Source of the DNA: Tritrichomonas musculus
Lineage: Eukaryota; Parabasalia; Tritrichomonadida; Tritrichomonadidae
Length of the DNA: 64,000 nt
Reading direction: 5' to 3'
NCBI GenBank assembly: GCA_039105265.1
Contig: JAPFFF010000058.1
Location: 1,014,072 to 1,078,071 of the forward strand
In this document: in pieces, positions 12,372 through 60,206 of the stretch
How positions within the stretch are numbered: position 1 is the first letter of the stretch
How the letters are laid out: every line of letters begins with the position of its first letter
Program-made: the position numbers and the translations under genes
The notes under the pieces: model-generated
The model's database searches: none
Told to the model about the DNA's origin: nothing
Seen by the model: only the letters and a program-made list of their open reading frames with translations

Positions 12372-13800
12372 GCTATCGCTTCTCAGCTGCAGGTGGAGGT
12401 AAAGAAATAAGGAAACTAAGTTTCCACCTGCGGCTGAGCTGCGACAGCTGCAGGTGGAAAATCACTATTTACCAATTTAGCCTTCCACCTGCGGCTATCG
12501 CTTCTCAGCTGCAGGTGGAGGTAAAGAAATAAGGAAACTAAGTTTCCACCTGCGGCTGAGCTGTGACAGCTGCAGGTGGAAAATCACTATTTACCAATTT
12601 AGCCTTCCACCTGCGGCTATCGCTTCTCAGCTGCAGGTGGAGGTAAAGAAATAAAGAAACTAAGTTTCCACCTGCGGCTATCGCTTCTCAGCTGCAGGTG
12701 GAGGTAAAGAAATAAAGAAACTAAGTTTCCACCTGCGGCTGAGCTGCGACAGCTGCAGGTGGAGGTAAAGAAATAAAGAAACTAAGTTTCCACCTGCGGC
12801 TATCGCTTCTCAGCTGCAGGTGGAGGTAAAGAAATAAAGAAACTAAGTTTCCACCTGCGGCTGAGCTGCGACAGCTGCAGGTGGAAAATCACTATTTACC
12901 AATTTAGCCTTCCACCTGCGGCTATCGCTTCTCAGCTGCAGGTGGAGGTAAAGAAATAAAGAAACTAAGTTTCCACCTGCGGCTGAGCTGCGACAGCTGC
13001 AGGTGGAAAATCACTATTTACCAATTTAGCCTTCCACCTGCGGCTATCGCTTCTCAGCTGCAGGTGGAGGTAAAGAAATAAGGAAACTAAGTTTCCACCT
13101 GCGGCTGAGCTGCGACAGCTGCAGGTGGAGGTAAAGAAATAAGGAAACTAAGTTTCCACCTGCGGCTATCGCTTCTCAGCTGCAAATGGAAGTAAAGAAA
13201 TAAGGAAACTAAGTTTCCACCTGCGGCTATCGCTTCTCAGCTGCAGGTGGAGGTAAAGAAATAAGGAAACTAAGTTTCCACCTGCGGCTGAGCTGCGACA
13301 GCTGCAGGTGGAAAATCACTATTTACCAATTTAGCCTTCCACCTGCGGCTATCGCTTCTCAGCTGCAGGTGGAGGTAAAGAAATAAGGAAACTAAGTTTC
13401 CACCTGCGGCTGAGCTGTGACAGCTGCAGGTGGAGGTAAAGAAATAAAGAAACTAAGTTTCCACCTGCGGCTGAGCTGCGACAGCTGCAGGTGGAAAATC
13501 ACTATTTACCAATTTAGCCTTCCACCTGCGGCTATCGCTTCTCAGCTGCAGGTGGAGGTAAAGAAATAAGGAAACTAAGTTTCCACCTGCGGCTATCGCT
13601 TCTCAGCTGCAGGTGGAGGTAAAGAAATAAAGAAACTAAGTTTCCACCTGCGGCTGAGCTGCGACAGCTGCAGGTGGAAAATCACTATTTACCAATTTAG
13701 CCTTCCACCTGCGGCTATCGCTTCTCAGCTGCAGGTGGAGGTAAAGAAATAAGGAAACTAAGTTTCCACCTGCGGCTGAGCTGCGACAGCTGCAGGTGGA
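12372..13800 (+). repeat. A-type GC-rich palindromic array, left copy, shuffled half-units
   Basis: About 23 half-units of 61 bp. Each contains a hairpin with the 8-bp stem CCACCTGC/GCAGGTGG. There are two hairpin cores (CTATCGCTTCTCAGCTG and CTGAGCTGCGACAGCTG) and two AT-rich spacers (GTAAAGAAATAA type and ATCACTATTTACC type). Core and spacer types are combined irregularly: either core may follow the first spacer, and the second core may be followed by either spacer. Units are near-identical apart from A/G and C/T changes. Confidence 0.9.
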
Positions 13801-14142
13801 AGTAATTACTTAAATGTAACATTTCAAACTTCCACCTGCAGCTATCGCAACTTAGTTGCAGGTGGAACTAATTATGCGAATTGAACTTCCACCTGCAGCT
13901 AAACTGCGATAGCTTCAGGTGGAAGTAATTACTTAAATGTACCATTTCAAACTTCCACCTGCAGCTATCGCAACTTAGTTGCAGGTGGAACTAATTACGC
14001 GAATTGAACTTCCACCTGCAGCTAAACTGCGATAGCTTCAGGTGGAAGTAATTACTTAAATGTACCATTTCAAACTTCCACCTGCAGCTATCGCAACTTA
14101 GTTGCAGGTGGAACTAATTACGCTAATTAAACTTCCACCTGC
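13801..14142 (+). repeat. B-type 123-bp tandem repeat, left copy (~2.8 units)
   Basis: Period 123 bp (starts at 13795, 13918 and 14041). Related to the A type by the CCACCTGCAGCT/GGTGGAA hairpin stems but with different spacers (AGTAATTACTTAAATGTACC and CTAATTACGCGAATTGAA types). Confidence 0.85.
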
Positions 14143-14234
14143 AATTAAAAGTTTTAAATATTTTTTTATTTATATTATTTTTCTTTTTTTATTTGTTCAA
14201 AATATTTTTTTTTTTTAAATTATTTAACATAGGA

Positions 14235-14261
14235 CACTTTTTGAGCGAAGCTCAAAAAGTG
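14235..14261. repeat. Perfect hairpin in element tail, left copy (GCGAAGC core)
   Basis: CACTTTTTGAGC, loop GAA, GCTCAAAAAGTG: a 12-bp perfect stem with a 3-nt loop. The apex GCGAAGC is a DNA mini-hairpin known for exceptional stability. The element ends 12 nt further on. Confidence 0.9.
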
Positions 14262-14273
14262 GCCATTCTTGTA

Positions 14274-15793
14274 CAATTGTAAATACAAAGACCAAGGCTT
14301 AATTATTTATAAGTTGATGTAAGAATATATAATTAGAAAACATTCATAAGGCAACGTATATTTGATATATTGGAAATTTAATTAAAATAATATATATAAA
14401 TCATGATTTTTTAAGTGAGTGTTTTATCAAAAAGATTTTCACAAAAAAATGGTTACACTTTCCGTTATAAAATCAAATTTTTCCGTAATCATAATGAACA
14501 TTTCCGTTATCATAATGAACTTTTCCGTTATTATAGTGGATATTTCCTTTATAATCCAGAAAAAACTGTAATTAAATCAATTATAATTTATAAATAATTA
14601 TTTGAATAGTTATAAATGTAATAAATTAAAGATCTACAAAAAATTGAGTGATGAATAAAAAAAATATTAATATTTTTAAACAAATTTATTGAAATAATAT
14701 ATGACTATATTTAATAAATATAAAGATTCTAGAAAATAAACTTTTTATTGCTGAATCTCTTTTATATTAGTGAACTATTTGCACAATTGCAATTGGACAT
14801 TAATGAATATATTAGTTTGATGTACAGAGAGCTCTCTGTACTTCAGCCTGAACAAAAAGAAATTGATAATTTTCAGGCTATTTTTCGTTAGGGCATCTAT
14901 CTTCGGTATCACAATTTTTGAAGTTGAGAAAATTTTCAACTTATAAGTAAAAGTAACTAAATAAATTGAAGTAAAGGGTTTCATTTCTAGAATAATTTGT
15001 TCAGTAAACGATCATGATCATTTTAATAGAAGGCGAATAAACATATTTTATAATCAAATAGAGTAAAAATAATTGAAAAGGCAGATAATCTCAATGCCAA
15101 ACAAAAAGTTCATATCGTATCCTGACTAAATACAAATTCAATGCTTTTATCCGGTGAAATGAATGCTAATTTTCAACTTTTTGAATGTCGTAAAAGTTTT
15201 CAATCTTTCCATTAATCTTTTACGACATTCAAAAATTGAATAATAATTATAGTGAAACCAAAAAAGATTGATGGAAAAAAAATTCAATAAGTGTTTAATA
15301 CACTTTTTTGCTATCAAAAATTTGATCGTTTTCCTTTAATAAGTTTTGGTTTAAATCAATCTTTTTTGTTCTTCTCAAAAAAACAAAAAGAGAGATAATT
15401 TTTCAAAATTTGGCCTTCAATTGACCCATATGAAATATCCAAATCCTGAAAAATCATATGTCTTTTTTGCTCCTTGGGAAGAACAATGTGGATTGCCATA
15501 GTTCATTTATGTTTTGCATATGCATTATAATAAATAATTAATGCCATATTTCATAATGGTTGGTAAGTATGAAAGAGTTTTAAGAGTTCGTTAATGCTAT
15601 CAACCTAATAAAAAAATGAAGAAAAAAAAAATTATTTAAATTCTGTGGATAAGAAAATTTCCTCTCAATTCTATCAATTTTTTTAATAATAATTATCTAA
15701 CTATTGGCTCTATATCGCAATTATATATTTTATATTTATAATATATTATAGACTTAACATAAATATATTTATCATTGACCTGTATCTTTTTTT
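14274..15793. other. 1.5-kb spacer between the two inverted satellite elements
   Basis: The first 300 bp are the right terminus of the mariner-like element. Beyond it, plus-strand 14745-14891 reads about 45 uninterrupted coding-like codons (for example EYISLMYRELSVLQPEQKEI) before a stop. Around 15400-15470 the frame KYPNPEKSYVFFAPWEEQCG is also protein-like. Both look like gene relics of unknown family. A hairpin lies at 15172-15240. Confidence 0.35.
15172..15240. repeat. Near-perfect 24-bp inverted repeat
   Basis: TTTTTGAATGTCGTAAAAG near 15178-15196 is mirrored by CTTTTACGACATTCAAAAA at 15217-15235, extended outward by TTCAA on both sides, with a ~20-base loop. Confidence 0.8.
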
Positions 15794-15930
15794 TACAAGA
15801 ATGGCCACTTTTTGAGCTTCGCTCAAAAAGTGTCCTATGTTAAATAATGTAAAAAAAAAAAAAAAAAAAATTTTGAACAAATAAAAACTAAAAGAAAAAT
15901 AATATAAATAAAAAAATATTTAAAACTTTT

Positions 15931-16403
15931 AGTTGCAGGTGGAAGTTTAATTCGCGTAATTAGTTCCAACTGCAGCTAAGTTGCGATAGCTGCAGGTGGA
16001 AGTTTGAAATGGTACATTTAAGTAATTACTTCCACCTGAAGCTATCGCAGTTTAGCTGCAGGTGGAAGTTTAATTCGCGTAATTAGTTCCAACTGCAGCT
16101 AAGTTGCGATAGCTGCAGGTGGAAGTTTGAAATGGTACATTTAAGTAATTACTTCCACCTGAAGCTATCGCAGTTTAGCTGCAGGTGGAAGTTTAATTCG
16201 CGTAATTAGTTCCAACTGCAGCTAAGTTGCGATAGCTGCAGGTGGAAGTTTGAAATGGTACATTTAAGTAATTACTTCCACCTAAAGCTATCGCAGTTTA
16301 GCTGCAGGTGGAAGTTTAATTCGCGTAATTAGTTCCAACTGCAGCTAAGTTGCGATAGCTGCAGGTGGAAGTTTGAAATGGTACATTTAAGTAATTACTT
16401 CCA
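15931..16403 (-). repeat. B-type 123-bp tandem repeat, right copy (~3.8 units)
   Basis: Period 123 bp (15938, 16061, 16184, 16307). Same family as 13801-14142 but with TTCCAACTGCAGCT where the left copy has TTCCACCTGCAGCT. The change sits in a hairpin stem and weakens it. Confidence 0.85.
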
Positions 16404-19400
16404 CCTTTAGCTATCGCAGCTCAGCCGCAGGTGGAAACTTGGTTTCCTTATTTATTTACTTCCACCTGCAGCTGAGAAGCGATAGCCGCAGGTGGAAGGC
16501 TAAATTGGTAAATAGTGATTTTCCACCTGCAGCTGTCGCAGCTCAGCCGCAGGTGGAAGATTGGTTTCCTTATTTATTTACCTCCACCTGCAGCTGAGAA
16601 GCGATAGCCGCAGGTGGAAGGCTAAATTGGTAAATAGTGATTTTCCACCTGCAGCTGTCGCAGCTCAGCCGCAGGTGGAAGATTGGTTTCCTTATTTATT
16701 TACTTCCACCTGCAGCTGAGAAGCGATAGCCGCAGGTGGAAGGCTAAATTGGTAAATAGTGATTTTCCACCTGCAGCTGTCGCAGCTCAGCCGCAGGTGG
16801 AAGATTGGTTTCCTTATTTATTTACCTCCACCTGCAGCTGAGAAGCGATAGCCGCAGGTGGAAGGCTAAATTGGTAAATAGTGATTTTCCACCTGCAGCT
16901 GTCGCAGCTCAGCCGCAGGTGGAAGATTGGTTTCCTTATTTATTTACCTCCACCTGCAGCTGAGAAGCGATAGCCGCAGGTGGAAGGCTAAATTGGTAAA
17001 TAGTGATTTTCCACCTGCAGCTGTCGCAGCTCAGCCGCAGGTGGAAGATTGGTTTCCTTATTTATTTACCTCCACCTGCAGCTGAGAAGCGATAGCCGCA
17101 GGTGGAAGGCTAAATTGGTAAATAGTGATTTTCCACCTGCAGCTGTCGCAGCTCAGCCGCAGGTGGAAGATTGGTTTCCTTATTTATTTACTTCCACCTG
17201 CAGCTGAGAAGCGATAGCCGCAGGTGGAAGGCTAAATTGGTAAATAGTGATTTTCCACCTGCAGCTGTCGCAGCTCAGCCGCAGGTGGAAGATTGGTTTC
17301 CTTATTTATTTACCTCCACCTGCAGCTGAGAAGCGATAGCCGCAGGTGGAAGGCTAAATTGGTAAATAGTGATTTTCCACCTGCAGCTGTCGCAGCTCAG
17401 CCGCAGGTGGAAGATTGGTTTCCTTATTTATTTACCTCCACCTGCAGCTGAGAAGCGATAGCCGCAGGTGGAAGGCTAAATTGGTAAATAGTGATTTTCC
17501 ACCTGCAGCTGTCGCAGCTCAGCCGCAGGTGGAAGATTGGTTTCCTTATTTATTTACTTCCACCTGCAGCTGAGAAGCGATAGCCGCAGGTGGAAGGCTA
17601 AATTGGTAAATAGTGATTTTCCACCTGCAGCTGTCGCAGCTCAGCCGCAGGTGGAAGATTGGTTTCCTTATTTATTTACCTCCACCTGCAGCTGAGAAGC
17701 GATAGCCGCAGGTGGAAGGCTAAATTGGTAAATAGTGATTTTCCACCTGCAGCTGTCGCAGCTCAGCCGCAGGTGGAAGATTGGTTTCCTTATTTATTTA
17801 CCTCCACCTGCAGCTGAGAAGCGATAGCCGCAGGTGGAAGGCTAAATTGGTAAATAGTGATTTTCCACCTGCAGCTGTCGCAGCTCAGCCGCAGGTGGAA
17901 GATTGGTTTCCTTATTTATTTACCTCCACCTGCAGCTGAGAAGCGATAGCCGCAGGTGGAAGGCTAAATTGGTAAATAGTGATTTTCCACCTGCAGCTGT
18001 CGCAGCTCAGCCGCAGGTGGAAGATTGGTTTCCTTATTTATTTACTTCCACCTGCAGCTGAGAAGCGATAGCCGCAGGTGGAAGGCTAAATTGGTAAATA
18101 GTGATTTTCCACCTGCAGCTGTCGCAGCTCAGCCGCAGGTGGAAGATTGGTTTCCTTATTTATTTACCTCCACCTGCAGCTGAGAAGCGATAGCCGCAGG
18201 TGGAAGGCTAAATTGGTAAATAGTGATTTTCCACCTGCAGCTGTCGCAGCTCAGCCGCAGGTGGAAGATTGGTTTCCTTATTTATTTACCTCCACCTGCA
18301 GCTGAGAAGCGATAGCCGCAGGTGGAAGGCTAAATTGGTAAATAGTGATTTTCCACCTGCAGCTGTCGCAGCTCAGCCGCAGGTGGAAGATTGGTTTCCT
18401 TATTTATTTACTTCCACCTGCAGCTGAGAAGCGATAGCCGCAGGTGGAAGGCTAAATTGGTAAATAGTGATTTTCCACCTGCAGCTGTCGCAGCTCAGCC
18501 GCAGGTGGAAGATTGGTTTCCTTATTTATTTACCTCCACCTGCAGCTGAGAAGCGATAGCCGCAGGTGGAAGGCTAAATTGGTAAATAGTGATTTTCCAC
18601 CTGCAGCTGTCGCAGCTCAGCCGCAGGTGGAAGATTGGTTTCCTTATTTATTTACTTCCACCTGCAGCTGAGAAGCGATAGCCGCAGGTGGAAGGCTAAA
18701 TTGGTAAATAGTGATTTTCCACCTGCAGCTGTCGCAGCTCAGCCGCAGGTGGAAGATTGGTTTCCTTATTTATTTACCTCCACCTGCAGCTGAGAAGCGA
18801 TAGCCGCAGGTGGAAGGCTAAATTGGTAAATAGTGATTTTCCACCTGCAGCTGTCGCAGCTCAGCCGCAGGTGGAAGATTGGTTTCCTTATTTATTTACC
18901 TCCACCTGCAGCTGAGAAGCGATAGCCGCAGGTGGAAGGCTAAATTGGTAAATAGTGATTTTCCACCTGCAGCTGTCGCAGCTCAGCCGCAGGTGGAAGA
19001 TTGGTTTCCTTATTTATTTACCTCCACCTGCAGCTGAGAAGCGATAGCCGCAGGTGGAAGGCTAAATTGGTAAATAGTGATTTTCCACCTGCAGCTGTCG
19101 CAGCTCAGCCGCAGGTGGAAGATTGGTTTCCTTATTTATTTACTTCCACCTGCAGCTGAGAAGCGATAGCCGCAGGTGGAAGGCTAAATTGGTAAATAGT
19201 GATTTTCCACCTGCAGCTGTCGCAGCTCAGCCGCAGGTGGAAGATTGGTTTCCTTATTTATTTACCTCCACCTGCAGCTGAGAAGCGATAGCCGCAGGTG
19301 GAAGGCTAAATTGGTAAATAGTGATTTTCCACCTGCAGCTGTCGCAGCTCAGCCGCAGGTGGAAGATTGGTTTCCTTATTTATTTACTTCCACCTGCAGC

Positions 19401-22400
19401 TGAGAAGCGATAGCCGCAGGTGGAAGGCTAAATTGGTAAATAGTGATTTTCCACCTGCAGCTGTCGCAGCTCAGCCGCAGGTGGAAGATTGGTTTCCTTA
19501 TTTATTTACCTCCACCTGCAGCTGAGAAGCGATAGCCGCAGGTGGAAGGCTAAATTGGTAAATAGTGATTTTCCACCTGCAGCTGTCGCAGCTCAGCCGC
19601 AGGTGGAAGATTGGTTTCCTTATTTATTTACTTCCACCTGCAGCTGAGAAGCGATAGCCGCAGGTGGAAGGCTAAATTGGTAAATAGTGATTTTCCACCT
19701 GCAGCTGTCGCAGCTCAGCCGCAGGTGGAAGATTGGTTTCCTTATTTATTTACCTCCACCTGCAGCTGAGAAGCGATAGCCGCAGGTGGAAGGCTAAATT
19801 GGTAAATAGTGATTTTCCACCTGCAGCTGTCGCAGCTCAGCCGCAGGTGGAAGATTGGTTTCCTTATTTATTTACCTCCACCTGCAGCTGAGAAGCGATA
19901 GCCGCAGGTGGAAGGCTAAATTGGTAAATAGTGATTTTCCACCTGCAGCTGTCGCAGCTCAGCCGCAGGTGGAAGATTGGTTTCCTTATTTATTTACTTC
20001 CACCTGCAGCTGAGAAGCGATAGCCGCAGGTGGAAGGCTAAATTGGTAAATAGTGATTTTCCACCTGCAGCTGTCGCAGCTCAGCCGCAGGTGGAAGATT
20101 GGTTTCCTTATTTATTTACCTCCACCTGCAGCTGAGAAGCGATAGCCGCAGGTGGAAGGCTAAATTGGTAAATAGTGATTTTCCACCTGCAGCTGTCGCA
20201 GCTCAGCCGCAGGTGGAAGATTGGTTTCCTTATTTATTTACCTCCACCTGCAGCTGAGAAGCGATAGCCGCAGGTGGAAGGCTAAATTGGTAAATAGTGA
20301 TTTTCCACCTGCAGCTGTCGCAGCTCAGCCGCAGGTGGAAGATTGGTTTCCTTATTTATTTACTTCCACCTGCAGCTGAGAAGCGATAGCCGCAGGTGGA
20401 AGGCTAAATTGGTAAATAGTGATTTTCCACCTGCAGCTGTCGCAGCTCAGCCGCAGGTGGAAGATTGGTTTCCTTATTTATTTACCTCCACCTGCAGCTG
20501 AGAAGCGATAGCCGCAGGTGGAAGGCTAAATTGGTAAATAGTGATTTTCCACCTGCAGCTGTCGCAGCTCAGCCGCAGGTGGAAGATTGGTTTCCTTATT
20601 TATTTACCTCCACCTGCAGCTGAGAAGCGATAGCCGCAGGTGGAAGGCTAAATTGGTAAATAGTGATTTTCCACCTGCAGCTGTCGCAGCTCAGCCGCAG
20701 GTGGAAGATTGGTTTCCTTATTTATTTACCTCCACCTGCAGCTGAGAAGCGATAGCCGCAGGTGGAAGGCTAAATTGGTAAATAGTGATTTTCCACCTGC
20801 AGCTGTCGCAGCTCAGCCGCAGGTGGAAGATTGGTTTCCTTATTTATTTACCTCCACCTGCAGCTGAGAAGCGATAGCCGCAGGTGGAAGGCTAAATTGG
20901 TAAATAGTGATTTTCCACCTGCAGCTGTCGCAGCTCAGCCGCAGGTGGAAGATTGGTTTCCTTATTTATTTACCTCCACCTGCAGCTGAGAAGCGATAGC
21001 CGCAGGTGGAAGGCTAAATTGGTAAATAGTGATTTTCCACCTGCAGCTGTCGCAGCTCAGCCGCAGGTGGAAGATTGGTTTCCTTATTTATTTACTTCCA
21101 CCTGCAGCTGAGAAGCGATAGCCGCAGGTGGAAGGCTAAATTGGTAAATAGTGATTTTCCACCTGCAGCTGTCGCAGCTCAGCCGCAGGTGGAAGATTGG
21201 TTTCCTTATTTATTTACCTCCACCTGCAGCTGAGAAGCGATAGCCGCAGGTGGAAGGCTAAATTGGTAAATAGTGATTTTCCACCTGCAGCTGTCGCAGC
21301 TCAGCCGCAGGTGGAAGATTGGTTTCCTTATTTATTTACTTCCACCTGCAGCTGAGAAGCGATAGCCGCAGGTGGAAGGCTAAATTGGTAAATAGTGATT
21401 TTCCACCTGCAGCTGTCGCAGCTCAGCCGCAGGTGGAAGATTGGTTTCCTTATTTATTTACCTCCACCTGCAGCTGAGAAGCGATAGCCGCAGGTGGAAG
21501 GCTAAATTGGTAAATAGTGATTTTCCACCTGCAGCTGTCGCAGCTCAGCCGCAGGTGGAAGATTGGTTTCCTTATTTATTTACCTCCACCTGCAGCTGAG
21601 AAGCGATAGCCGCAGGTGGAAGGCTAAATTGGTAAATAGTGATTTTCCACCTGCAGCTGTCGCAGCTCAGCCGCAGGTGGAAGATTGGTTTCCTTATTTA
21701 TTTACCTCCACCTGCAGCTGAGAAGCGATAGCCGCAGGTGGAAGGCTAAATTGGTAAATAGTGATTTTCCACCTGCAGCTGTCGCAGCTCAGCCGCAGGT
21801 GGAAGATTGGTTTCCTTATTTATTTACCTCCACCTGCAGCTGAGAAGCGATAGCCGCAGGTGGAAGGCTAAATTGGTAAATAGTGATTTTCCACCTGCAG
21901 CTGTCGCAGCTCAGCCGCAGGTGGAAGATTGGTTTCCTTATTTATTTACCTCCACCTGCAGCTGAGAAGCGATAGCCGCAGGTGGAAGGCTAAATTGGTA
22001 AATAGTGATTTTCCACCTGCAGCTGTCGCAGCTCAGCCGCAGGTGGAAGATTGGTTTCCTTATTTATTTACCTCCACCTGCAGCTGAGAAGCGATAGCCG
22101 CAGGTGGAAGGCTAAATTGGTAAATAGTGATTTTCCACCTGCAGCTGTCGCAGCTCAGCCGCAGGTGGAAGATTGGTTTCCTTATTTATTTACCTCCACC
22201 TGCAGCTGAGAAGCGATAGCCGCAGGTGGAAGGCTAAATTGGTAAATAGTGATTTTCCACCTGCAGCTGTCGCAGCTCAGCCGCAGGTGGAAGATTGGTT
22301 TCCTTATTTATTTACTTCCACCTGCAGCTGAGAAGCGATAGCCGCAGGTGGAAGGCTAAATTGGTAAATAGTGATTTTCCACCTGCAGCTGTCGCAGCTC

Positions 22401-23225
22401 AGCCGCAGGTGGAAGATTGGTTTCCTTATTTATTTACCTCCACCTGCAGCTGAGAAGCGATAGCCGCAGGTGGAAGGCTAAATTGGTAAATAGTGATTTT
22501 CCACCTGCAGCTGTCGCAGCTCAGCCGCAGGTGGAAGATTGGTTTCCTTATTTATTTACTTCCACCTGCAGCTGAGAAGCGATAGCCGCAGGTGGAAGGC
22601 TAAATTGGTAAATAGTGATTTTCCACCTGCAGCTGTCGCAGCTCAGCCGCAGGTGGAAGATTGGTTTCCTTATTTATTTACCTCCACCTGCAGCTGAGAA
22701 GCGATAGCCGCAGGTGGAAGGCTAAATTGGTAAATAGTGATTTTCCACCTGCAGCTGTCGCAGCTCAGCCGCAGGTGGAAGATTGGTTTCCTTATTTATT
22801 TACCTCCACCTGCAGCTGAGAAGCGATAGCCGCAGGTGGAAGGCTAAATTGGTAAATAGTGATTTTCCACCTGCAGCTGTCGCAGCTCAGCCGCAGGTGG
22901 AAGATTGGTTTCCTTATTTATTTACTTCCACCTGCAGCTGAGAAGCGATAGCCGCAGGTGGAAGGCTAAATTGGTAAATAGTGATTTTCCACCTGCAGCT
23001 GTCGCAGCTCAGCCGCAGGTGGAAGATTGGTTTCCTTATTTATTTACTTCCACCTGCAGCTGAGAAGCGATAGCCGCAGGTGGAAGGCTAAATTGGTAAA
23101 TAGTGATTTTCCACCTGCAGCTGTCGCAGCTCAGCCGCAGGTGGAAGATTGGTTTCCTTATTTATTTACCTCCACCTGCAGCTGAGAAGCGATAGCCGCA
23201 GGTGGAAGGCTAAATTGGTAAATAG
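16404..23225 (-). repeat. A-type 122-bp satellite, right copy (~56 near-identical units)
   Basis: Exact 122-bp period over 6.8 kb (for example 16523, 16645, 16767). Each unit has two hairpins with CCACCTGC/GCAGGTGG stems, one enclosing AGCTG-TCG-CAGCT, and two AT-rich spacers; unlike the left copy these alternate strictly. The first unit is divergent, forming the junction with the B type. Elsewhere the main visible variation is one C/T site (TTTACCTCC versus TTTACTTCC). Each unit carries several E-box-like CACCTG and CAGCTG sites. GC content is far above the surroundings. Confidence 0.95.
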
Positions 23226-23700
23226 AGAATATCAAATCAAAGATATGAAGTGTTTTTTTTTCATCCACCTTTTCGCTCTCAAAAATTTAAAAAATATTAT
23301 ATTTTAATCATTTTTGAATAAAAACTCTTTATATATTAGAGATAGGATTTTTTTAATGATAGATTTGATATACTGATATTATTCTGATTTTTTTAAGCCT
23401 ATGTTCAAAATGAACTCTTATTATATATAGGATAATAAAATAAAAGTATGCAAAATTTGAGGTGATTATTTTTTATAACTTTTTGTGTTATATAAAAAAT
23501 AAACTATTCAAATCTTCAATCAATCTTTTTTTGTGGCACTATAAATCCTTATTTTTCTCAAATGAAACTACATATAGTTTCCAAATATATCCATATAAAA
23601 CTATAATTAAATACAGTTGTTACAATACTTATTTTGAAATTTAGTGGGAAATCCTTGAGTATAGAAAAAGTTTGTTCATAATAATTTTCAAAAAATCTAG
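23226..23700. other. AT-rich region before the ubiquitin-like gene
   Basis: No gene was seen; the open frame at 23462-23644 is compositional. TCATAA at 23676-23681 is a weak initiator candidate for the gene at 23701. Confidence 0.4.
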
Positions 23701-28200: not shown

Positions 28201-30300
28201 TTATGTATTCTGTCCTATCTTCAATAATGGACATCCACGGAAGCAATTCCTACCAATTAACTTTACAGAAGAAGGAATTGTTATTTGTGTCAACGATGAA
28301 CATCCTTCGAAAGCAGAATCTCCAATTTCGGTTACAGAAGAAGGAATCGTGATTTGTGTCAACGACGAACATCCACCAAAACAATTCTTATCAATTAACT
28401 TTACAGAAGAAGGAATTGTTATTTGTTTCAATGACGAGCATCTATGAAAAGCAAATTCTCTAATTGAAGCTACATAAGGAGGGATTGTGATTTCTGTCAA
28501 TGATGAACACTTATTAAAACAATTCCTACCAATTAACTTTACCGAAGAAGGAATTGTTATTTGCTTCAATGACGAACATCCATAAAAAGTAGAATCTTCA
28601 ATTGAAGTCACAAAAGGAGGGATTGTGATTTCTGTCAATGATGAACATCTACAGAAAGCACTTTTCCCAATTGAGGTTACAGAAGAAGGAATTGCAATTT
28701 CTGTCAACAATGAGCATTCACAAAAGAGAGACCATCCAATTATTCTCACAGAAGAAGGAATTGAAATACACTTCAACGACGAGCATCCATAAAAAGTATT
28801 CCATCCAATTTTTCTTACTGAAGAAGGAATTGAAATTTGCTCCATTGATGAACATCCACGAAAAGCACTGCTGCCAATTGATGTTACTGAAGGAATAGAA
28901 ATTTGCACCAGTGATGAACAACCTTCAAAAGAATTTTCTTCAATTTCGGTTACAGAAGAAGGAATCATGATTCTTGTCAACGATACACAGCATTTGAAAG
29001 AGCCTTTACCAATTTTTGTTACAGAAGGAGGAATTGTGATTTCTGCCAACGATGAGCAACCTTCAAAAGAATTGTCTCCAATTTCTGTTACAGAAAAAGG
29101 AATTGAAATTTGAATCATCGATGAGCAACCTTCAAAAGAATTGTCTCCAATTTCTGTTACAGAAGAAGGAATTGTAATTCCTGTCAACGATGCGCAACAT
29201 TTGAAAGAGCCTTTACCAATCTGTGTTACAGAAGAAGGAATTGTGATTTCTGCCAACGATGAACAACCTTCAAAAGAATTGTCTCCTATTTGCGTTACTG
29301 AAGGAGGAACTGTGATTTGCTTCAACGAAAAACACAGATTCTTGATTCTGAAAGAAAATGCACTCTGTGAACTAGAGATGATGTCTCCAATTTCTTCAGG
29401 GAAAAAGTGGTAGTTATAACAATTAACAATACAAAACGCAAAATGGCCAATTTCTATTTCATTCAAAAAGTTGTCCTTTATGTAACCAGCCACGTCATTG
29501 TGGTGGCAAATAACCGACTCTTCATATAACTTATAACTGCTTTCTTGCCTGACTTTGTTTTCTTCTAGAAAATGGATCAAGTCAGCATTATTGGAATGCA
29601 CTGCGTAAAGCCACAAAGAATCACTCAGTGGAACGTTGTTGTATTGCAGATATCGAACGATTTGAATCGACCCATAAAAAGACGCATATTCAATCAACGT
29701 TTGTCTTTTTTCTAACAGAAAAAAAATCGTTTCATAAATTGAAGGCTCAATCCGATTTGAAAGCGATGTATTGGATCGAGTTGTATACGAACTAAATTCT
29801 TCAACGAGGTCTTGTCGTATTAACGTACAAATATATGAGTCGTTTTCGCCTGTTCGACATTTGCATTCAAAATTTTCGTTTTCTTTTTCATATTCTTCTT
29901 TGATTTCGCTTTCAATTTCATTCGTATCAATGAAAGATTTGAGACCTGGATACAAATAATGACTGTATGGAAAATTGTTTTTATCTTTCTGAAGTTTAAT
30001 ATAATTTTTTTATTTGGTCGGATGAGGTTTTGTTCTAAAAGTAGTAAAAGAATTCGCTTGTTGTTTTTAAAAAATTGGTAGATATCAAAGTCACTTATTT
30101 GAGGTTCTGTTTCGTGGATTATCTGCTATTTTTGATATTAAGTGGAGCGTTGATAGGCTTTCTTCTTTATTTTTTAAATAATCTCGTTTTTTAAATTCTT
30201 TAAATAACAGCTCTATATCTTCATTTTCTGAAGAATCAATGAATTCCATTAGAGAAGAATACATTTCTTTCTTTTCCCGAATAATTAATTCGATTTCCAT
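28201..30300 (-). pseudogene. BspA-like leucine-rich-repeat protein with DUF3447 region, two frameshifts
   Basis: The long intact part (about 29990 down to 28201) has a DUF3447/ankyrin-like region with TLIEYASFYGSIQIVRYL and LWLYAVHSNNADLIHFLEE. It is followed by 16 BspA-type LRR_5 repeats of 23 residues (consensus LTEITIPSSVTSIGxSAFxGCSS). The family N-terminus is encoded upstream from ATG at 30298-30300 (MEIELIIREKKEMYSSLMEF) in a different frame. Two single-base steps break it: one at the GG at 30116-30117 and one at the T7 run at 30005-30011, with clearly coding sequence (DIYQFFKNNKRILLLL) between them in a third frame. BspA-like proteins are typically surface-associated in trichomonads, but no membrane helix or signal is seen here. 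A true pseudogene or a homopolymer sequencing error fit equally well. Confidence 0.8.
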
Positions 30301-51008: not shown

Positions 51009-52985
51009 ATGGCGCCTAAGCGAAATCCATCATGGTTTACTCCCGAAACAGGAGCAAAAGCAAGATCTCAGCAAACTTACGAAAAGCTCTTAGAAGACAA
51101 TCAAAGATTACAAGGTGAAAATGAAAGGTTAATTTTGGAGAATACAAGGCTAAAAAGACAAATAGCAGACTTACAGAAAATTAAATTGAATATACCAGAA
51201 GACAAACAAAAAACGATTAATATTAGTCCAATAGTATTAAGATTCATCGGCGCTACATGGGATAATATAACAAAATTTCCTCAAGGAAGACGTTATGATG
51301 GACTTCACGAATTCTTTGCACTGTTAAGCATGATGAGTCCACATTACTTCAATATTTTAAATACCAATTTATTGTTTCCAACATATAAAACTGCTTCAAC
51401 ATATAGAAAGCAAGCTCTCGCTAATTTAGGAATACATGACGACATTTTTAATGGCGATATACAAAATATTTTGAATATCATGTCAAGGTTTTTACCAAAT
51501 AATTTTACTGGAAAAGGAGTTATCATGGTTGATGCTGCATATGTTACACCGTATGTCAAAGTAAACAAAAATGGTAGGATTGATGGCGTGCTAAATCTCA
51601 AAGAGATCGATCCAGAATTAGCAGAAACATTTATTAATGATGACAACGAATTTTTAGAATTTATTAAATTAAATTATAACTCAGTGATACAAGCAGAATT
51701 CGGTATGACATTTGCACCATTAAATCCAGAATTTAAACAGTTTCCAATTGCATGTATTCCGTCGACGTCAGGTAAGGCAACACAAGAGTTACGCGAAAAA
51801 ATTGAATCGATCATATCACTCATGCCAAAAAACATAAGTATTATCGGATTAGGCACTGATGGTGACAACACTTATAGCATATATGCAAATATATTCATCG
51901 ACAAAATTATTGGTAACTTCGAAAGATTCCTAAGTCTTGGTGCTGTTGGTATAATTAAAATATTTGCAGTATTAATTCATTTTTCAGATCCATTGCACCT
52001 GACAAAAAGAGATCGTTACAGAAAATCCTCTCTTGAAGAATTCCTAGTTTCTCCATATGATTCTTATGAAACACGGTCTGCAGAAGATTTAAAAACTATT
52101 GGAATTGCTCCTTACTTATTGGATAACAACAAAGGACGTAAAATGGAAGATGACCTCCCAAAAAAATTGTTTACTTTACAAACAATTCAAAAAATAATTG
52201 ATGACGAAGACTTTTATTTACTTTTATCAATGCTTCCTTCTACACTCTTACTAGAGGCACTATTCAGGAATTCACTAAGTCGGCAAGAGACTATTGACTA
52301 TCTTTTACTTGGTGCAAGTATTGTATTGATTTATTATCTTATGCAACAATATGTCATTGAACACAACTTAAAAATTTATCGTGTGCAGCCCAATACCTAT
52401 AAGAAAATGAGATGTTTCACAGATAATTGGTGTAAACAATACATATTTACTGCAATTGGAATTGCATCTCAAATAATCACTGAAGAAGCTATTGATACAG
52501 GCGCATGCAGTTCACACTACCAAGAACACAATTTTGCAAATGTTCGGAGGCATAATAAAAAAGATGACAGCCACGTGAATTTCCAGAAATCAATGAAATA
52601 CATTCTATTGGAGCACGAATTGTACAAGAACATGCCTATTGAAGAAAAAGTTCCAGAATCACGAAGTGACAGTGGGAAGAAAATTTTTGACAACACTCCA
52701 GTTGAAGAACGTCCAATAATTTACTATCTTCGGCAAGCATTGTACCTTTGGAAGAATGTTCAAATTGTAAGAAAAATGCCATTATTGAAGTTAATCGATC
52801 CAAAGCCAAGAAAAATGCCATTTCAAGAGTTAAGTGGGATTTTGGGGAATTTTTATGAAAAAAATCGATGTTCAATTTCTACCAAATCAACGGGCATGAT
52901 AAAAACAGCTGGTTTGAACAACATGATATTTTGGAATGCTGATGAGCAGTTGAATAACTTGGTTAATGATGATGATTCTGAATAA
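51009..52985 (+). CDS. P-element/THAP9-like DDE transposase, copy 1
   Basis: A 658-residue protein. Residues ~24-58 form a leucine-zipper-like coiled coil (LLEDNQRLQGENERLILENT) in place of a THAP zinc finger. The RNase-H-like core shows VIMVDAAYVTP (D175), IIGLGTDGDNTYS (D284/D286), HFSDPLHLTKRDRYR (D327, H330, K333; the D-x-x-H-L-x-K-x-x-R motif of P-superfamily enzymes) and SSHYQEHNFANVRR (E506, matching the late catalytic Glu in E-x-x-F-x-x-x-R). A helical insertion between the D-x-x-H motif and E506 replaces the GTP-binding insert of the Drosophila protein; no GTPase motif is visible. The basic start MAPKRNPSWF could aid nuclear entry or DNA binding. An initiator lies 11 nt upstream, and TAAA overlaps the stop, as in trichomonad polyadenylation signals. 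All key residues are intact. Confidence 0.75.
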   Translation: MAPKRNPSWFTPETGAKARSQQTYEKLLEDNQRLQGENERLILENTRLKRQIADLQKIKLNIPEDKQKTINISPIVLRFIGATWDNITKFPQGRRYDGLHEFFALLSMMSPHYFNILNTNLLFPTYKTASTYRKQALANLGIHDDIFNGDIQNILNIMSRFLPNNFTGKGVIMVDAAYVTPYVKVNKNGRIDGVLNLKEIDPELAETFINDDNEFLEFIKLNYNSVIQAEFGMTFAPLNPEFKQFPIACIPSTSGKATQELREKIESIISLMPKNISIIGLGTDGDNTYSIYANIFIDKIIGNFERFLSLGAVGIIKIFAVLIHFSDPLHLTKRDRYRKSSLEEFLVSPYDSYETRSAEDLKTIGIAPYLLDNNKGRKMEDDLPKKLFTLQTIQKIIDDEDFYLLLSMLPSTLLLEALFRNSLSRQETIDYLLLGASIVLIYYLMQQYVIEHNLKIYRVQPNTYKKMRCFTDNWCKQYIFTAIGIASQIITEEAIDTGACSSHYQEHNFANVRRHNKKDDSHVNFQKSMKYILLEHELYKNMPIEEKVPESRSDSGKKIFDNTPVEERPIIYYLRQALYLWKNVQIVRKMPLLKLIDPKPRKMPFQELSGILGNFYEKNRCSISTKSTGMIKTAGLNNMIFWNADEQLNNLVNDDDSE

Positions 52986-53083
52986 AAGATAATTTTTTCA
53001 TTTCACTTTTTATATATAGAAATATTTGAATATTTTATGACATGTCAAAAATTTTAAAAAAATATAGAACATAGGAAACTCTC

Positions 53084-54008
53084 GAGATATGTCGATATGC
53101 TTCGAAATTAATAATATATACTCACCATAGATAGTTATTGATGATTTCAGATTTTAAGCGAAATCGCGGCGGAGAGTCTTTCAAAAAGTTGTGATTTTCA
53201 TAACGAGTCTCCAGACGTAAATGTAAAAATGTTTCAAAATTTATGGTATTATAAGAATATATATTGCAAGCATCTTAATATATATCAATTGTTATATTTT
53301 TATTAGCTTCGCTTTGCATCGAGTTATTAATAAAATATATTTCAAAAATTTGATTTCTGTATTTTTGCATTAAATGTCAGAAAAAAAAATAGTTGTACCT
53401 ACATAATCAGTATAACAATAATTGCATTACTGTATTGTATATGATTATAAAATTATAGGATTGTATGTTTATTGTATATAGAGTAATAACCAAAAACTCC
53501 TATCCGTGAAGAATGAGATTTTTTATATTAAGATAAAAATACAAAAAAACTCGTTACTAACAATATCGGCCAAAATTCAATATTTTTACCCAAAAATTGG
53601 TTATTTGTCTTATTATGATGTTAAAAACACGATTAAGCAAAAAAATTGCGCATTATAAGTATATATCCCGAGATAAAGCGATTTACACTATTTTTAGCCG
53701 ATTTTACGATTTTTTTTGGAAAAAACGATTCCAGGACAGAGCCAACGAATGACCGGTATATTACATTTATCTTAAATAGTAGTATACATTGCATTATATA
53801 TTATATTAAATTTTTAGAAAAATCGTCCGCCAAATTTTCGAGAAAAATCAATTACAAAATTATACTACATTTGAATAGAAATTCCTCTCAATTTTGGCAA
53901 CTTTCTTTGATCATATCTCAGTATATACGCAAAATTAGGAAAATGTTTTCTATTAAAATATTCTTATAATATGATATACTTTATTATATATTAATTTCAA
54001 AAGATTAT
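53084..54008. other. Array spacer 2 (full length)
   Basis: Begins GAGATATGTCGATATGC and contains the 69 bp missing from spacer 1. Otherwise identical by eye. No gene. Includes GCGGCGGAGAGTC near its left part and several A/T runs. Confidence 0.6.
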
Positions 54009-56182
54009 GAGAGTTTCCTATGTTCTATAATTTTTCGTGGTCATGCTTTTTTTTCCTTTCAAATTTAAAAACCTCTGAAATTTTCAATATAGAATCATTT
54101 TTTTTTAATGGCGCCTAAGCGAAATCCATCATGGTTTACTCCCGAAACAGGAGCAAAAGCAAGATCTCAGCAAACTTACGAAAAGCTCTTAGAAGACAAT
54201 CAAAGATTACAAGGTGAAAATGAAAGGTTAATTTTGGAGAATACAAGGCTAAAAAGACAAATAGCAGACTTACAGAAAATTAAATTGAATATACCAGAAG
54301 ACAAACAAAAAACGATTAATATTAGTCCAATAGTATTAAGATTCATCGGCGCTACATGGGATAATATAACAAAATTTCCTCAAGGAAGACGTTATGATGG
54401 ACTTCACGAATTCTTTGCACTGTTAAGCATGATGAGTCCACATTACTTCAATATTTTAAATACCAATTTATTGTTTCCAACATATAAAACTGCTTCAACA
54501 TATAGAAAGCAAGCTCTCGCTAATTTAGGAATACATGACGACATTTTTAATGGCGATATACAAAATATTTTGAATATCATGTCAAGGTTTTTACCAAATA
54601 ATTTTACTGGAAAAGGAGTTATCATGGTTGATGCTGCATATGTTACACCGTATGTCAAAGTAAACAAAAATGGTAGGATTGATGGCGTGCTAAATCTCAA
54701 AGAGATCGATCCAGAATTAGCAGAAACATTTATTAATGATGACAACGAATTTTTAGAATTTATTAAATTAAATTATAACTCAGTGATACAAGCAGAATTC
54801 GGTATGACATTTGCACCATTAAATCCAGAATTTAAACAGTTTCCAATTGCATGTATTCCGTCGACGTCAGGTAAGGCAACACAAGAGTTACGCGAAAAAA
54901 TTGAATCGATCATATCACTCATGCCAAAAAACATAAGTATTATCGGATTAGGCACTGATGGTGACAACACTTATAGCATATATGCAAATATATTCATCGA
55001 CAAAATTATTGGTAACTTCGAAAGATTCCTAAGTCTTGGTGCTGTTGGTATAATTAAAATATTTGCAGTATTAATTCATTTTTCAGATCCATTGCACCTG
55101 ACAAAAAGAGATCGTTACAGAAAATCCTCTCTTGAAGAATTCCTAGTTTCTCCATATGATTCTTATGAAACACGGTCTGCAGAAGATTTAAAAACTATTG
55201 GAATTGCTCCTTACTTATTGGATAACAACAAAGGACGTAAAATGGAAGATGACCTCCCAAAAAAATTGTTTACTTTACAAACAATTCAAAAAATAATTGA
55301 TGACGAAGACTTTTATTTACTTTTATCAATGCTTCCTTCTACACTCTTACTAGAGGCACTATTCAGGAATTCACTAAGTCGGCAAGAGACTATTGACTAT
55401 CTTTTACTTGGTGCAAGTATTGTATTGATTTATTATCTTATGCAACAATATGTCATTGAACACAACTTAAAAATTTATCGTGTGCAGCCCAATACCTATA
55501 AGAAAATGAGATGTTTCACAGATAATTGGTGTAAACAATACATATTTACTGCAATTGGAATTGCATCTCAAATAATCACTGAAGAAGCTATTGATACAGG
55601 CGCATGCAGTTCACACTACCAAGAACACAATTTTGCAAATGTTCGGAGGCATAATAAAAAAGATGACAGCCACGTGAATTTCCAGAAATCAATGAAATAC
55701 ATTCTATTGGAGCACGAATTGTACAAGAACATGCCTATTGAAGAAAAAGTTCCAGAATCACGAAGTGACAGTGGGAAGAAAATTTTTGACAACACTCCAG
55801 TTGAAGAACGTCCAATAATTTACTATCTTCGGCAAGCATTGTACCTTTGGAAGAATGTTCAAATTGTAAGAAAAATGCCATTATTGAAGTTAATCGATCC
55901 AAAGCCAAGAAAAATGCCATTTCAAGAGTTAAGTGGGATTTTGGGGAATTTTTATGAAAAAAATCGATGTTCAATTTCTACCAAATCAACGGGCATGATA
56001 AAAACAGCTGGTTTGAACAACATGATATTTTGGAATGCTGATGAGCAGTTGAATAACTTGGTTAATGATGATGATTCTGAATAAAAGATAATTTTTTCAT
56101 TTCACTTTTTATATATAGAAATATTTGAATATTTTATGACATGTCAAAAATTTTAAAAAAATATAGAACATAGGAAACTCTC
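54009..56182 (+). mobile_element. P-element-like transposon, copy 2
   Basis: Exact 3,099-bp displaced copy of 50910-53083, with both inverted ends present (right end AGAACATAGGAAACTCTC at 56165-56182). Confidence 0.65.
54108..56084 (+). CDS. P-like transposase, copy 2 (identical protein)
   Basis: Encodes the same 658 residues as copy 1, including D175, D284, D327 and E506. The absence of even silent changes by eye implies very recent duplication, ongoing homogenisation, or an assembly repeat. Confidence 0.75.
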   Translation: MAPKRNPSWFTPETGAKARSQQTYEKLLEDNQRLQGENERLILENTRLKRQIADLQKIKLNIPEDKQKTINISPIVLRFIGATWDNITKFPQGRRYDGLHEFFALLSMMSPHYFNILNTNLLFPTYKTASTYRKQALANLGIHDDIFNGDIQNILNIMSRFLPNNFTGKGVIMVDAAYVTPYVKVNKNGRIDGVLNLKEIDPELAETFINDDNEFLEFIKLNYNSVIQAEFGMTFAPLNPEFKQFPIACIPSTSGKATQELREKIESIISLMPKNISIIGLGTDGDNTYSIYANIFIDKIIGNFERFLSLGAVGIIKIFAVLIHFSDPLHLTKRDRYRKSSLEEFLVSPYDSYETRSAEDLKTIGIAPYLLDNNKGRKMEDDLPKKLFTLQTIQKIIDDEDFYLLLSMLPSTLLLEALFRNSLSRQETIDYLLLGASIVLIYYLMQQYVIEHNLKIYRVQPNTYKKMRCFTDNWCKQYIFTAIGIASQIITEEAIDTGACSSHYQEHNFANVRRHNKKDDSHVNFQKSMKYILLEHELYKNMPIEEKVPESRSDSGKKIFDNTPVEERPIIYYLRQALYLWKNVQIVRKMPLLKLIDPKPRKMPFQELSGILGNFYEKNRCSISTKSTGMIKTAGLNNMIFWNADEQLNNLVNDDDSE

Positions 56183-57107
56183 GAGATATGTCGATATGCT
56201 TCGAAATTAATAATATATACTCACCATAGATAGTTATTGATGATTTCAGATTTTAAGCGAAATCGCGGCGGAGAGTCTTTCAAAAAGTTGTGATTTTCAT
56301 AACGAGTCTCCAGACGTAAATGTAAAAATGTTTCAAAATTTATGGTATTATAAGAATATATATTGCAAGCATCTTAATATATATCAATTGTTATATTTTT
56401 ATTAGCTTCGCTTTGCATCGAGTTATTAATAAAATATATTTCAAAAATTTGATTTCTGTATTTTTGCATTAAATGTCAGAAAAAAAAATAGTTGTACCTA
56501 CATAATCAGTATAACAATAATTGCATTACTGTATTGTATATGATTATAAAATTATAGGATTGTATGTTTATTGTATATAGAGTAATAACCAAAAACTCCT
56601 ATCCGTGAAGAATGAGATTTTTTATATTAAGATAAAAATACAAAAAAACTCGTTACTAACAATATCGGCCAAAATTCAATATTTTTACCCAAAAATTGGT
56701 TATTTGTCTTATTATGATGTTAAAAACACGATTAAGCAAAAAAATTGCGCATTATAAGTATATATCCCGAGATAAAGCGATTTACACTATTTTTAGCCGA
56801 TTTTACGATTTTTTTTGGAAAAAACGATTCCAGGACAGAGCCAACGAATGACCGGTATATTACATTTATCTTAAATAGTAGTATACATTGCATTATATAT
56901 TATATTAAATTTTTAGAAAAATCGTCCGCCAAATTTTCGAGAAAAATCAATTACAAAATTATACTACATTTGAATAGAAATTCCTCTCAATTTTGGCAAC
57001 TTTCTTTGATCATATCTCAGTATATACGCAAAATTAGGAAAATGTTTTCTATTAAAATATTCTTATAATATGATATACTTTATTATATATTAATTTCAAA
57101 AGATTAT
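56183..57107. other. Array spacer 3
   Basis: Same as spacer 2 by eye; no gene seen. Confidence 0.6.
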
Positions 57108-59281: not shown

Positions 59282-60206
59282 GAGATATGTCGATATGCTT
59301 CGAAATTAATAATATATACTCACCATAGATAGTTATTGATGATTTCAGATTTTAAGCGAAATCGCGGCGGAGAGTCTTTCAAAAAGTTGTGATTTTCATA
59401 ACGAGTCTCCAGACGTAAATGTAAAAATGTTTCAAAATTTATGGTATTATAAGAATATATATTGCAAGCATCTTAATATATATCAATTGTTATATTTTTA
59501 TTAGCTTCGCTTTGCATCGAGTTATTAATAAAATATATTTCAAAAATTTGATTTCTGTATTTTTGCATTAAATGTCAGAAAAAAAAATAGTTGTACCTAC
59601 ATAATCAGTATAACAATAATTGCATTACTGTATTGTATATGATTATAAAATTATAGGATTGTATGTTTATTGTATATAGAGTAATAACCAAAAACTCCTA
59701 TCCGTGAAGAATGAGATTTTTTATATTAAGATAAAAATACAAAAAAACTCGTTACTAACAATATCGGCCAAAATTCAATATTTTTACCCAAAAATTGGTT
59801 ATTTGTCTTATTATGATGTTAAAAACACGATTAAGCAAAAAAATTGCGCATTATAAGTATATATCCCGAGATAAAGCGATTTACACTATTTTTAGCCGAT
59901 TTTACGATTTTTTTTGGAAAAAACGATTCCAGGACAGAGCCAACGAATGACCGGTATATTACATTTATCTTAAATAGTAGTATACATTGCATTATATATT
60001 ATATTAAATTTTTAGAAAAATCGTCCGCCAAATTTTCGAGAAAAATCAATTACAAAATTATACTACATTTGAATAGAAATTCCTCTCAATTTTGGCAACT
60101 TTCTTTGATCATATCTCAGTATATACGCAAAATTAGGAAAATGTTTTCTATTAAAATATTCTTATAATATGATATACTTTATTATATATTAATTTCAAAA
60201 GATTAT
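59282..60206. other. Array spacer 4
   Basis: Same as spacer 2 by eye; no gene seen. Confidence 0.6.

What the first reader, a model, noticed from the sequence alone, without database searches (positions are those of the whole stretch)
12372..23225. Two inverted copies of a non-coding element built from GC-rich palindromic 122/123-bp satellites
A GC-rich array in very AT-rich DNA appears twice in opposite orientation, each time in the order A-type array, B-type array, unique ~130-bp tail, with the tail ending at the same base (CTTGTA). That shared order and sharp tail end make it a transposable or replicating unit rather than a plain satellite. Copies differ greatly in array length (1.4 versus 6.8 kb of A type). 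I know of no described trichomonad element of this kind. Alternatives are a giant foldback element whose arms are 12372-14273 and 15794-23225, or two separate insertions.
Basis: partly seen in the sequence, partly recalled or inferred. Interest (0 to 1): 0.88.

Follow-up and report, generated by a model that had tools for sequence, protein, structure and literature searches.

The report
Jumping DNA packed with palindromic satellite
Two mobile DNA elements of the rolling-circle (Helitron) type, made almost entirely of a long GC-rich repeated sequence, sit in opposite orientation in the genome of a mouse-gut protist; they show how a transposon can scatter satellite DNA.

Summary
The two arrays are copies of a non-autonomous Helitron-type (rolling-circle) element in the Tritrichomonas musculus genome. 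Copy 2 is complete (15796-23432, minus strand); copy 1 (12372-14271) lacks its 5' end. I found 76 tails and 70 5' ends in the genome (lower bounds); 50 pair into elements of 0.8-15.3 kb, ten of exactly the same length. The 3' end is a hairpin, ten bases ending in CTTG, then host T (50 of 50 distinct flanks read). Empty sites show insertion between A and T without target duplication, as in Helitrons, not at TT as in Helentrons. A Rep/PIF1-helicase Helitron in the same genome has a nearly identical 5' end and the same hairpin stem and loop, with an array element fused in front of it; its two copies are identical in the three stretches compared. One pair of near-identical satellite elements differs by eight whole 122-bp units. 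Tandem arrays inside non-autonomous Helentrons are published for oysters and Drosophila, so the kind is known. What differs is the trichomonad host, the CTTG end, the TTA|T target and arrays of about 60 units.

The parts
15796..23432 (-). Copy 2: complete non-autonomous Helitron-type element, 7,637 bp from 5' TCC to 3' CTTG (7,639 if the two host bases TA are counted, as)
23226..23432 (-).
16403..23225 (-). A-type array of copy 2, 122-bp units, each two inverted GC-rich boxes plus AT-rich spacers
   Evidence: A/B boundary read by eye
15925..16402 (-). B-type array of copy 2 (about 123-bp units); boundaries approximate, by eye
15796..15924 (-). AT-rich tail of copy 2 ending in CTTG
15806..15832 (-). 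3' terminal hairpin of copy 2 (12-bp stem, GAA loop), 10 nt from the 3' end
   Evidence: the same sequence in copy 1 was folded
12372..14271 (+). Copy 1: 5'-truncated element, 1,900 bp, 29 boxes
12372..13801 (+). A-type array of copy 1 (irregular order of half units); end approximate
13802..14142 (+). B-type array of copy 1; boundaries approximate
14143..14271 (+). Tail of copy 1 ending in CTTG; host sequence begins with T at 14272
14235..14261 (+). 3' terminal hairpin of copy 1 (12-bp stem, GAA loop)
   Evidence: DNA fold of 14219-14271: -14.7 kcal/mol, shuffle mean -2.99, 0 of 200 shuffles as good

Best explanation
Each array is the body of a non-autonomous Helitron-type rolling-circle transposon. 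Shown: fixed 5' and 3' ends, a terminal 3' hairpin, insertion between A and T (host TTA|T) with no duplication, many dispersed copies, and a Rep/PIF1-helicase element in the same genome with a nearly identical 5' end and the same hairpin stem and loop. Inferred: the Rep/helicase made by such partners nicks at the A|TC junction, the helicase peels off one strand, the hairpin and CTTG end mark the stop, and the strand is joined at a TTA|T site. Whatever lies between the ends is copied along, including the satellite. The array can gain or lose whole 122-bp units (seen in one pair of near-identical copies), most likely by slippage or unequal exchange (inferred), and length variants then spread as lineages (inferred from equal lengths at different sites).
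For: 3' boundary sharp in 42 of 42 and 50 of 50 distinct flanks, next base always T. 5' boundary sharp in 44 of 44 distinct flanks, always preceded by T; the next two bases are host by the empty sites and read TA in 68 and AA in 2 of 70 matches. 70 5' ends and 76 tails (74 plus two) pair into 50 elements, with repeated exact lengths: ten of 6,663, four each of 5,260, 3,606 and 1,411 bp; eight of the ten were read at the 5' flank and all eight differ. Empty sites: 14 of 14 fetched copies of a host repeat, out of 40 scored and 147 candidates, carry the A-T junction predicted by A|T insertion, and a local duplicate at C37 fits exactly. Hairpin. Partner: ORF of 1,808 aa with Helitron_like_N and PIF1; its inner 5' end has 4 mismatches and a 1-base gap to copy 2 over about 206 bp; copies on C1 and C6 at different flanks, with 3,384 of 3,384, 220 of 220 and 414 of 414 compared bases identical. 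Rep-tail linkage: 5 of 20 Rep places have such a 3' end within 5 kb downstream on the same strand, 0.04 expected; four end in CTTG, the one on C19 in CTTA, and C1 and C6 are copies of one element. Array change: copy 2 versus the C85 copy, 2 mismatches and one 976-bp (8 x 122) gap.
Against: The 3' end is CTTG, not the canonical CTRR. The intact Rep element ends in GTCCCTTG, not CATTCTTG; the one Rep place with the exact CATTCTTG end (C8, L071) has only a 494-aa fragment without a helicase hit and no 5' end that I could recognise, so no intact partner with both identical ends was seen. Two of three joined-flank searches found no empty site. 20 of 70 5' ends and 26 of 76 tails are unpaired; read by eye, five of those 20 (two of them the Rep composites) have one of the variant 3' ends downstream. 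Only a few elements were read in full. No transposition was observed.
Confidence: 0.92

Rival explanations
1. Helentron/HINE-type element (rolling-circle relative with endonuclease that inserts between T and T).
For: Flanks read T...T around TATCC...CTTG; internal satellite arrays are described for this group (PMC7492417, PMC4067079); a 10-bp subterminal inverted repeat (ATTTTGAACA / TGTTCAAAAT) can be read from the ends by eye.
Against: Empty sites carry an A-T at the junction that only A|T insertion explains (14 of 14 fetched, plus C37). The partner protein has no endonuclease hit in Pfam at E 0.01.
Confidence: 0.05
2. Giant foldback element, or one local inverted duplication of a plain satellite.
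For: Two convergent copies 1.5 kb apart in the window; a second convergent tail pair on C41; short inverted matches between the left flank and the middle.
Against: 50 paired single elements, 44 distinct 5' flanks and 50 distinct 3' flanks read; no match between the outer flanks.
Confidence: 0.01
3. Plain satellite spread by segmental duplication or ectopic recombination; the tail is only linked sequence.
For: C27 has nine tails in one direction, four spacings exactly 4,109 bp, as in a local tandem amplification.
Against: Flanks differ right after CTTG T and right before the 5' end at dozens of sites, and empty sites exist.
Confidence: 0.01

Closest known systems
Cg_HINE elements of the oyster Crassostrea gigas (PMC7492417; outline, abstract and first part of Results seen)
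   Same: Non-autonomous rolling-circle elements whose centre is a satellite-like tandem array, exceptionally two array types in consecutive order, with a 3' palindrome.
   Different: Those are classed as Helentrons; monomers 138-181 bp, 3.62 per array on average over the 13 clusters and at most 29.3. Here about 60 units of 122 bp in copy 2, A|T target, trichomonad host.
DINE-1 / HINE of Drosophila and mite (PMC4067079; passages seen)
   Same: Non-coding, 3' stem-loop, no target modification, tandem repeats in some copies, Rep/helicase partner.
   Different: T-rich/TT target and endonuclease-bearing partner there; here TTA|T and no endonuclease hit.
Canonical Helitrons (definition as given in PMC4067079)
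   Same: 5' TC, 3' hairpin about 10-11 nt from the end, A|T insertion, no duplication, Rep plus helicase.
   Different: 3' CTTG instead of CTRR; body made of a GC-rich palindromic satellite.

Membership tests
Helitron (canonical) | 5' end TC next to host A | tested here: met
   Element starts TCCTATATATAA; the base before it is A in 70 of 70 matches allowing 3 mismatches (one TCT variant, C2:5877091); boundary set by empty sites
Helitron (canonical) | 3' end CTRR | tested here: not met
   CTTG in 42 of 42 distinct tails, where 2 substitutions were allowed, and in the intact Rep element; so it is filed as a Helitron-type variant, not as a canonical CTRR Helitron
Helitron (canonical) | Palindrome of 16-20 nt about 11 nt from the 3' end | tested here: met
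   12-bp stem with GAA loop (27 nt, somewhat longer than 16-20), 10 nt from the end
Helitron (canonical) | Insertion between A and T without target duplication | tested here: met
   14 of 14 fetched empty copies of one host repeat and one local duplicate; 2 further searches found no empty site
Helitron (canonical) | Partner with HUH Rep and PIF1-type helicase | tested here: met
   1,808-aa ORF, Helitron_like_N 65.3 bits, PIF1 106.7 bits; HVH at residues 854-856 and YVLKY at 974-978 (positions; meaning of the motifs recalled). That this partner moves the element is inferred.
Helentron / HINE | TT target | tested here: not met
Helentron / HINE | Endonuclease domain in the partner | tested here: not met
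   no such Pfam hit in P0001 at E 0.01; relatives P0005, P0009, P0010 and P0012 list PF03372 (that PF03372 is the endonuclease family is recalled)
Helentron / HINE | Subterminal inverted repeats of 12-15 bp | tested here: inconclusive
   10-bp inverted match read by eye; not tested against chance
Foldback transposon | Long inverted arms as one mobile unit | tested here: not met
   single-arm elements dispersed

The most novel reading that the evidence does not exclude
The satellite is not passive cargo but a working part: a repeated ladder of GC-rich boxes that can pair with each other, acting on the displaced single strand or as a protein-binding platform that helps the element replicate or be recognised, so that selection keeps the boxes and favours long arrays.
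Probability: 0.15. Interest if true: 0.7.

Novelty: new variant of a known kind. Interest (0 to 1): 0.45.

Why it matters
It extends transposon-borne satellites, which the papers I saw describe for Helentrons of molluscs and insects, to a trichomonad and to an A|T-inserting Helitron type, with a Rep/helicase relative in the same genome that moved recently (two copies identical where compared). Because equal array lengths recur at different sites and one pair differs by whole units, the copies may form a natural series in which birth, growth and spread of a satellite can be timed. I found no description of Helitrons in Tritrichomonas, within limits: one search listed 25 papers, of which passages of two were seen; one search listed 15 of 257; one search found one paper, not opened. 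The T. musculus genome paper has no match for 'transpos' or 'satellite' in its main text.

Tried and rejected
TT-target (Helentron) boundary: it looked right from flank counts and was dropped after the empty sites. Giant foldback and segmental duplication: dropped. Empty-site searches at C1:3356 and C28:1771 found no empty site; six of the nine joined flanks were not searched. A 5' end for the C8 Rep fragment (L071) was not found. The N-terminal 260 residues of the partner look like a ubiquitin-specific protease only weakly: Pfam UCH 20.1 bits against a cut-off of 23.9, best solved-structure match E 0.24, no UCH hit in relatives P0002-P0004 at E 0.05; not claimed. The single-box palindrome score was measured on clipped boxes in the wrong register and is not used. 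In one search the 3' end of L017 was not recognised, so its box count is not bounded by the element.

Literature: of PMC7492417 I saw the outline, abstract and first part of Results; of PMC4067079, PMC7845603, PMC4021607 and PMC11978803 passages only; all other papers only as search listings.

Full report
Where it is. The window is C58:1014072-1078071 of a 193.4-Mb genome in 746 contigs. Contig C27 has 2,238,950 bases, the length of the contig of a protein labelled Tritrichomonas musculus; C1 (11,419,247) and C15 (3,579,227) equal the longest contig and the N50 printed for T. musculus in PMC11978803 (passages). The paper gives 756 contigs and 193.49 Mb. So the host is this mouse-gut commensal.

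The observation. Searches confirm two GC-rich arrays in AT-rich DNA, in opposite orientation, each A array, B array, tail. The units are 122 bp (A) and about 123 bp (B). Each unit holds two GC-rich boxes (62% GC as cut) separated by AT-rich spacers. One A unit, folded as DNA, forms a single long hairpin at -39.6 kcal/mol against a shuffle mean of -13.6 (0 of 200 shuffles as good), because the two boxes are inverted copies of each other.

The 3' end. A genome search with the tail scored 40 of 293 candidates and gave 40 near-full-length tails plus five weak second matches. A 29-base pattern found 74 tails with at most one mismatch; the reversed control found none. Among 42 distinct 3' flanks all begin with T after CTTG; with later loci 50 of 50 (identical flanks collapsed, tails near a locus end skipped, CTTG part of the pattern, some variant tails admitted). 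The end is a 12-bp stem with GAA loop and then ten bases that finish in CTTG.

The 5' end. Aligning left sides showed a shared 5' segment beyond the array. A 37-base pattern found 70 copies with at most three mismatches, control 0. In 44 distinct 5' flanks the base before TATCC is always T and the sequence further out varies.

Pairing. 50 of 70 5' ends pair with one of 76 tails on the same strand within 17 kb. Lengths run from 787 to 15,328 bp: ten of 6,663, four each of 5,260, 3,606 and 1,411, three each of 2,022 and 1,867. (These count two host bases, TA.) The two longest were not read inside and may hold other DNA. Of 15 loci counted for boxes, 13 have them and L052 and L057 have none in the 1,529 bases before the 3' end; two 1,867-bp copies (L067, L069) are identical over 1,500 compared bases and have eight boxes in the last 1,529 bases, then unrelated AT-rich DNA before the last part of the tail. 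So tail and array usually, not always, go together.

Target site. The flanks alone would fit a TT target. I joined flanks of nine insertions and searched three. One gave 40 scored full-length matches out of 147 candidates. I fetched 14 of these; all 14 carry T-run, A, T, A-run (one with an extra AT), which fits host A | element TCC...CTTG | host T and not T|T or a duplication, apart from run-length jitter of one or two bases. At C37 a duplicate of the target lies in the left flank and fits exactly. The other two searches gave no empty site. So the target is TTA|T, without duplication; the T before TA is constant in 44 of 44 flanks, TA in 68 of 70 (AA in 2).

The partner. Helitron_like_N has 22 matches in the genome, all over the curated cut-off, at 20 places after merging neighbours. 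At C1:1486614-1498245 a satellite element whose tail is cut before the hairpin is followed directly by a second 5' end, with 4 mismatches and a 1-base gap to that of copy 2 over about 206 bp. Then comes a 1,808-aa open frame with Helitron_like_N and PIF1 helicase, then a hairpin with the same stem and loop ending GTCCCTTG before T. The composite recurs at C6:2054781-2066413 with other flanks. Three compared stretches (3,384, 220 and 414 bases) are identical between the two, so it moved recently; the rest of C6 was not read. The nearest relative of the Rep/helicase part, P0002, is 63% identical and unnamed; the search scored only the 7,996 best candidates. A Rep fragment of 494 aa on C8 ends in the exact CATTCTTG tail. 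Five of 20 Rep places have such a 3' end within 5 kb downstream on the same strand against 0.04 expected; the one on C19 ends in CTTA, and C1 and C6 are one element. The stem and loop serve other groups in this genome as well: a second pattern gave 93 matches with at most two mismatches, 66 of them GTTTCTTG (counted by eye).

How the array changes. Copy 2 and the 6,663-bp copy on C85 differ by two mismatches and a single 976-bp gap, which is eight units. The ten 6,663-bp copies (eight read at the 5' flank, all different; one read in full) suggest that array length is passed on at transposition. Whether slippage, unequal exchange or rolling-circle replication changes it was not tested. Length differences are not all multiples of 61.

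Copies 1 and 2. The outer flanks share no match at E 1e-3; the middle has short inverted matches (67-71 bp) to the left flank and a 30-bp match to the right one. They are most simply two insertions, of which copy 1 has lost its 5' end.

Placing it. It works like a Helitron and meets the 5' TC, hairpin, A|T and Rep/helicase criteria; CTRR is not met. Satellite-bearing non-autonomous relatives are known as Cg_HINE (PMC7492417) and DINE-1/HINE (PMC4067079), which are Helentrons. Searches of the held library for Helitron with Trichomonas (25 papers listed), with trichomonad and related names (15 of 257 listed, none of the 15 with the word Helitron) and for T. musculus with transposable (one paper, not opened) showed no description of such an element; PMC7845603 only names a Helitron-finding program and PMC4021607 mentions Helitrons only in its background and references. 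The other listed papers were not opened. I judge it a well-supported new variant of a known kind.

Noticed in passing
window 51009-62282 (+): Four copies of a 658-aa open frame, the same as printed, spaced exactly 3,099 bp, near the end of contig C58; a tandem gene or element array.
   Followed up: no
G000:C27:595000-634000 (L002-L010, L072): Nine tails in one direction, four spacings exactly 4,109 bp; the unit read (L072) holds array, tail and about 3 kb of other DNA; looks like local tandem amplification of a truncated element.
   Followed up: partly
L115:5685-6464 (-), first 260 aa of the Helitron protein: Possible ubiquitin-specific-protease-like N-terminus (Cys and His boxes by eye), below the curated cut-off.
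   Followed up: partly
genome-wide: The same hairpin stem and loop with GTTTCTTG, GACACTTG or GTCCCTTG ends in 93 further matches (at most 2 mismatches): a larger group of Helitron ends with group-specific last bases.
   Followed up: no
C64:428269-429679 and C25:224128-229225: Two elements of different length (1,411 and 5,098 bp) at the same position of the same host repeat; either a hot site or one insertion whose array changed after the repeat was copied.
   Followed up: partly
C18:1653372, C23:424366, C207:9288: 1,867-bp derivatives that carry unrelated AT-rich DNA between array and terminal tail, as if a new 3' segment was picked up (C207 by length only).
   Followed up: partly
window 28201-29118 (-): Leucine-rich-repeat open frame that resembles the BspA-like proteins of trichomonads (family judged by eye, not tested).
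   Followed up: no
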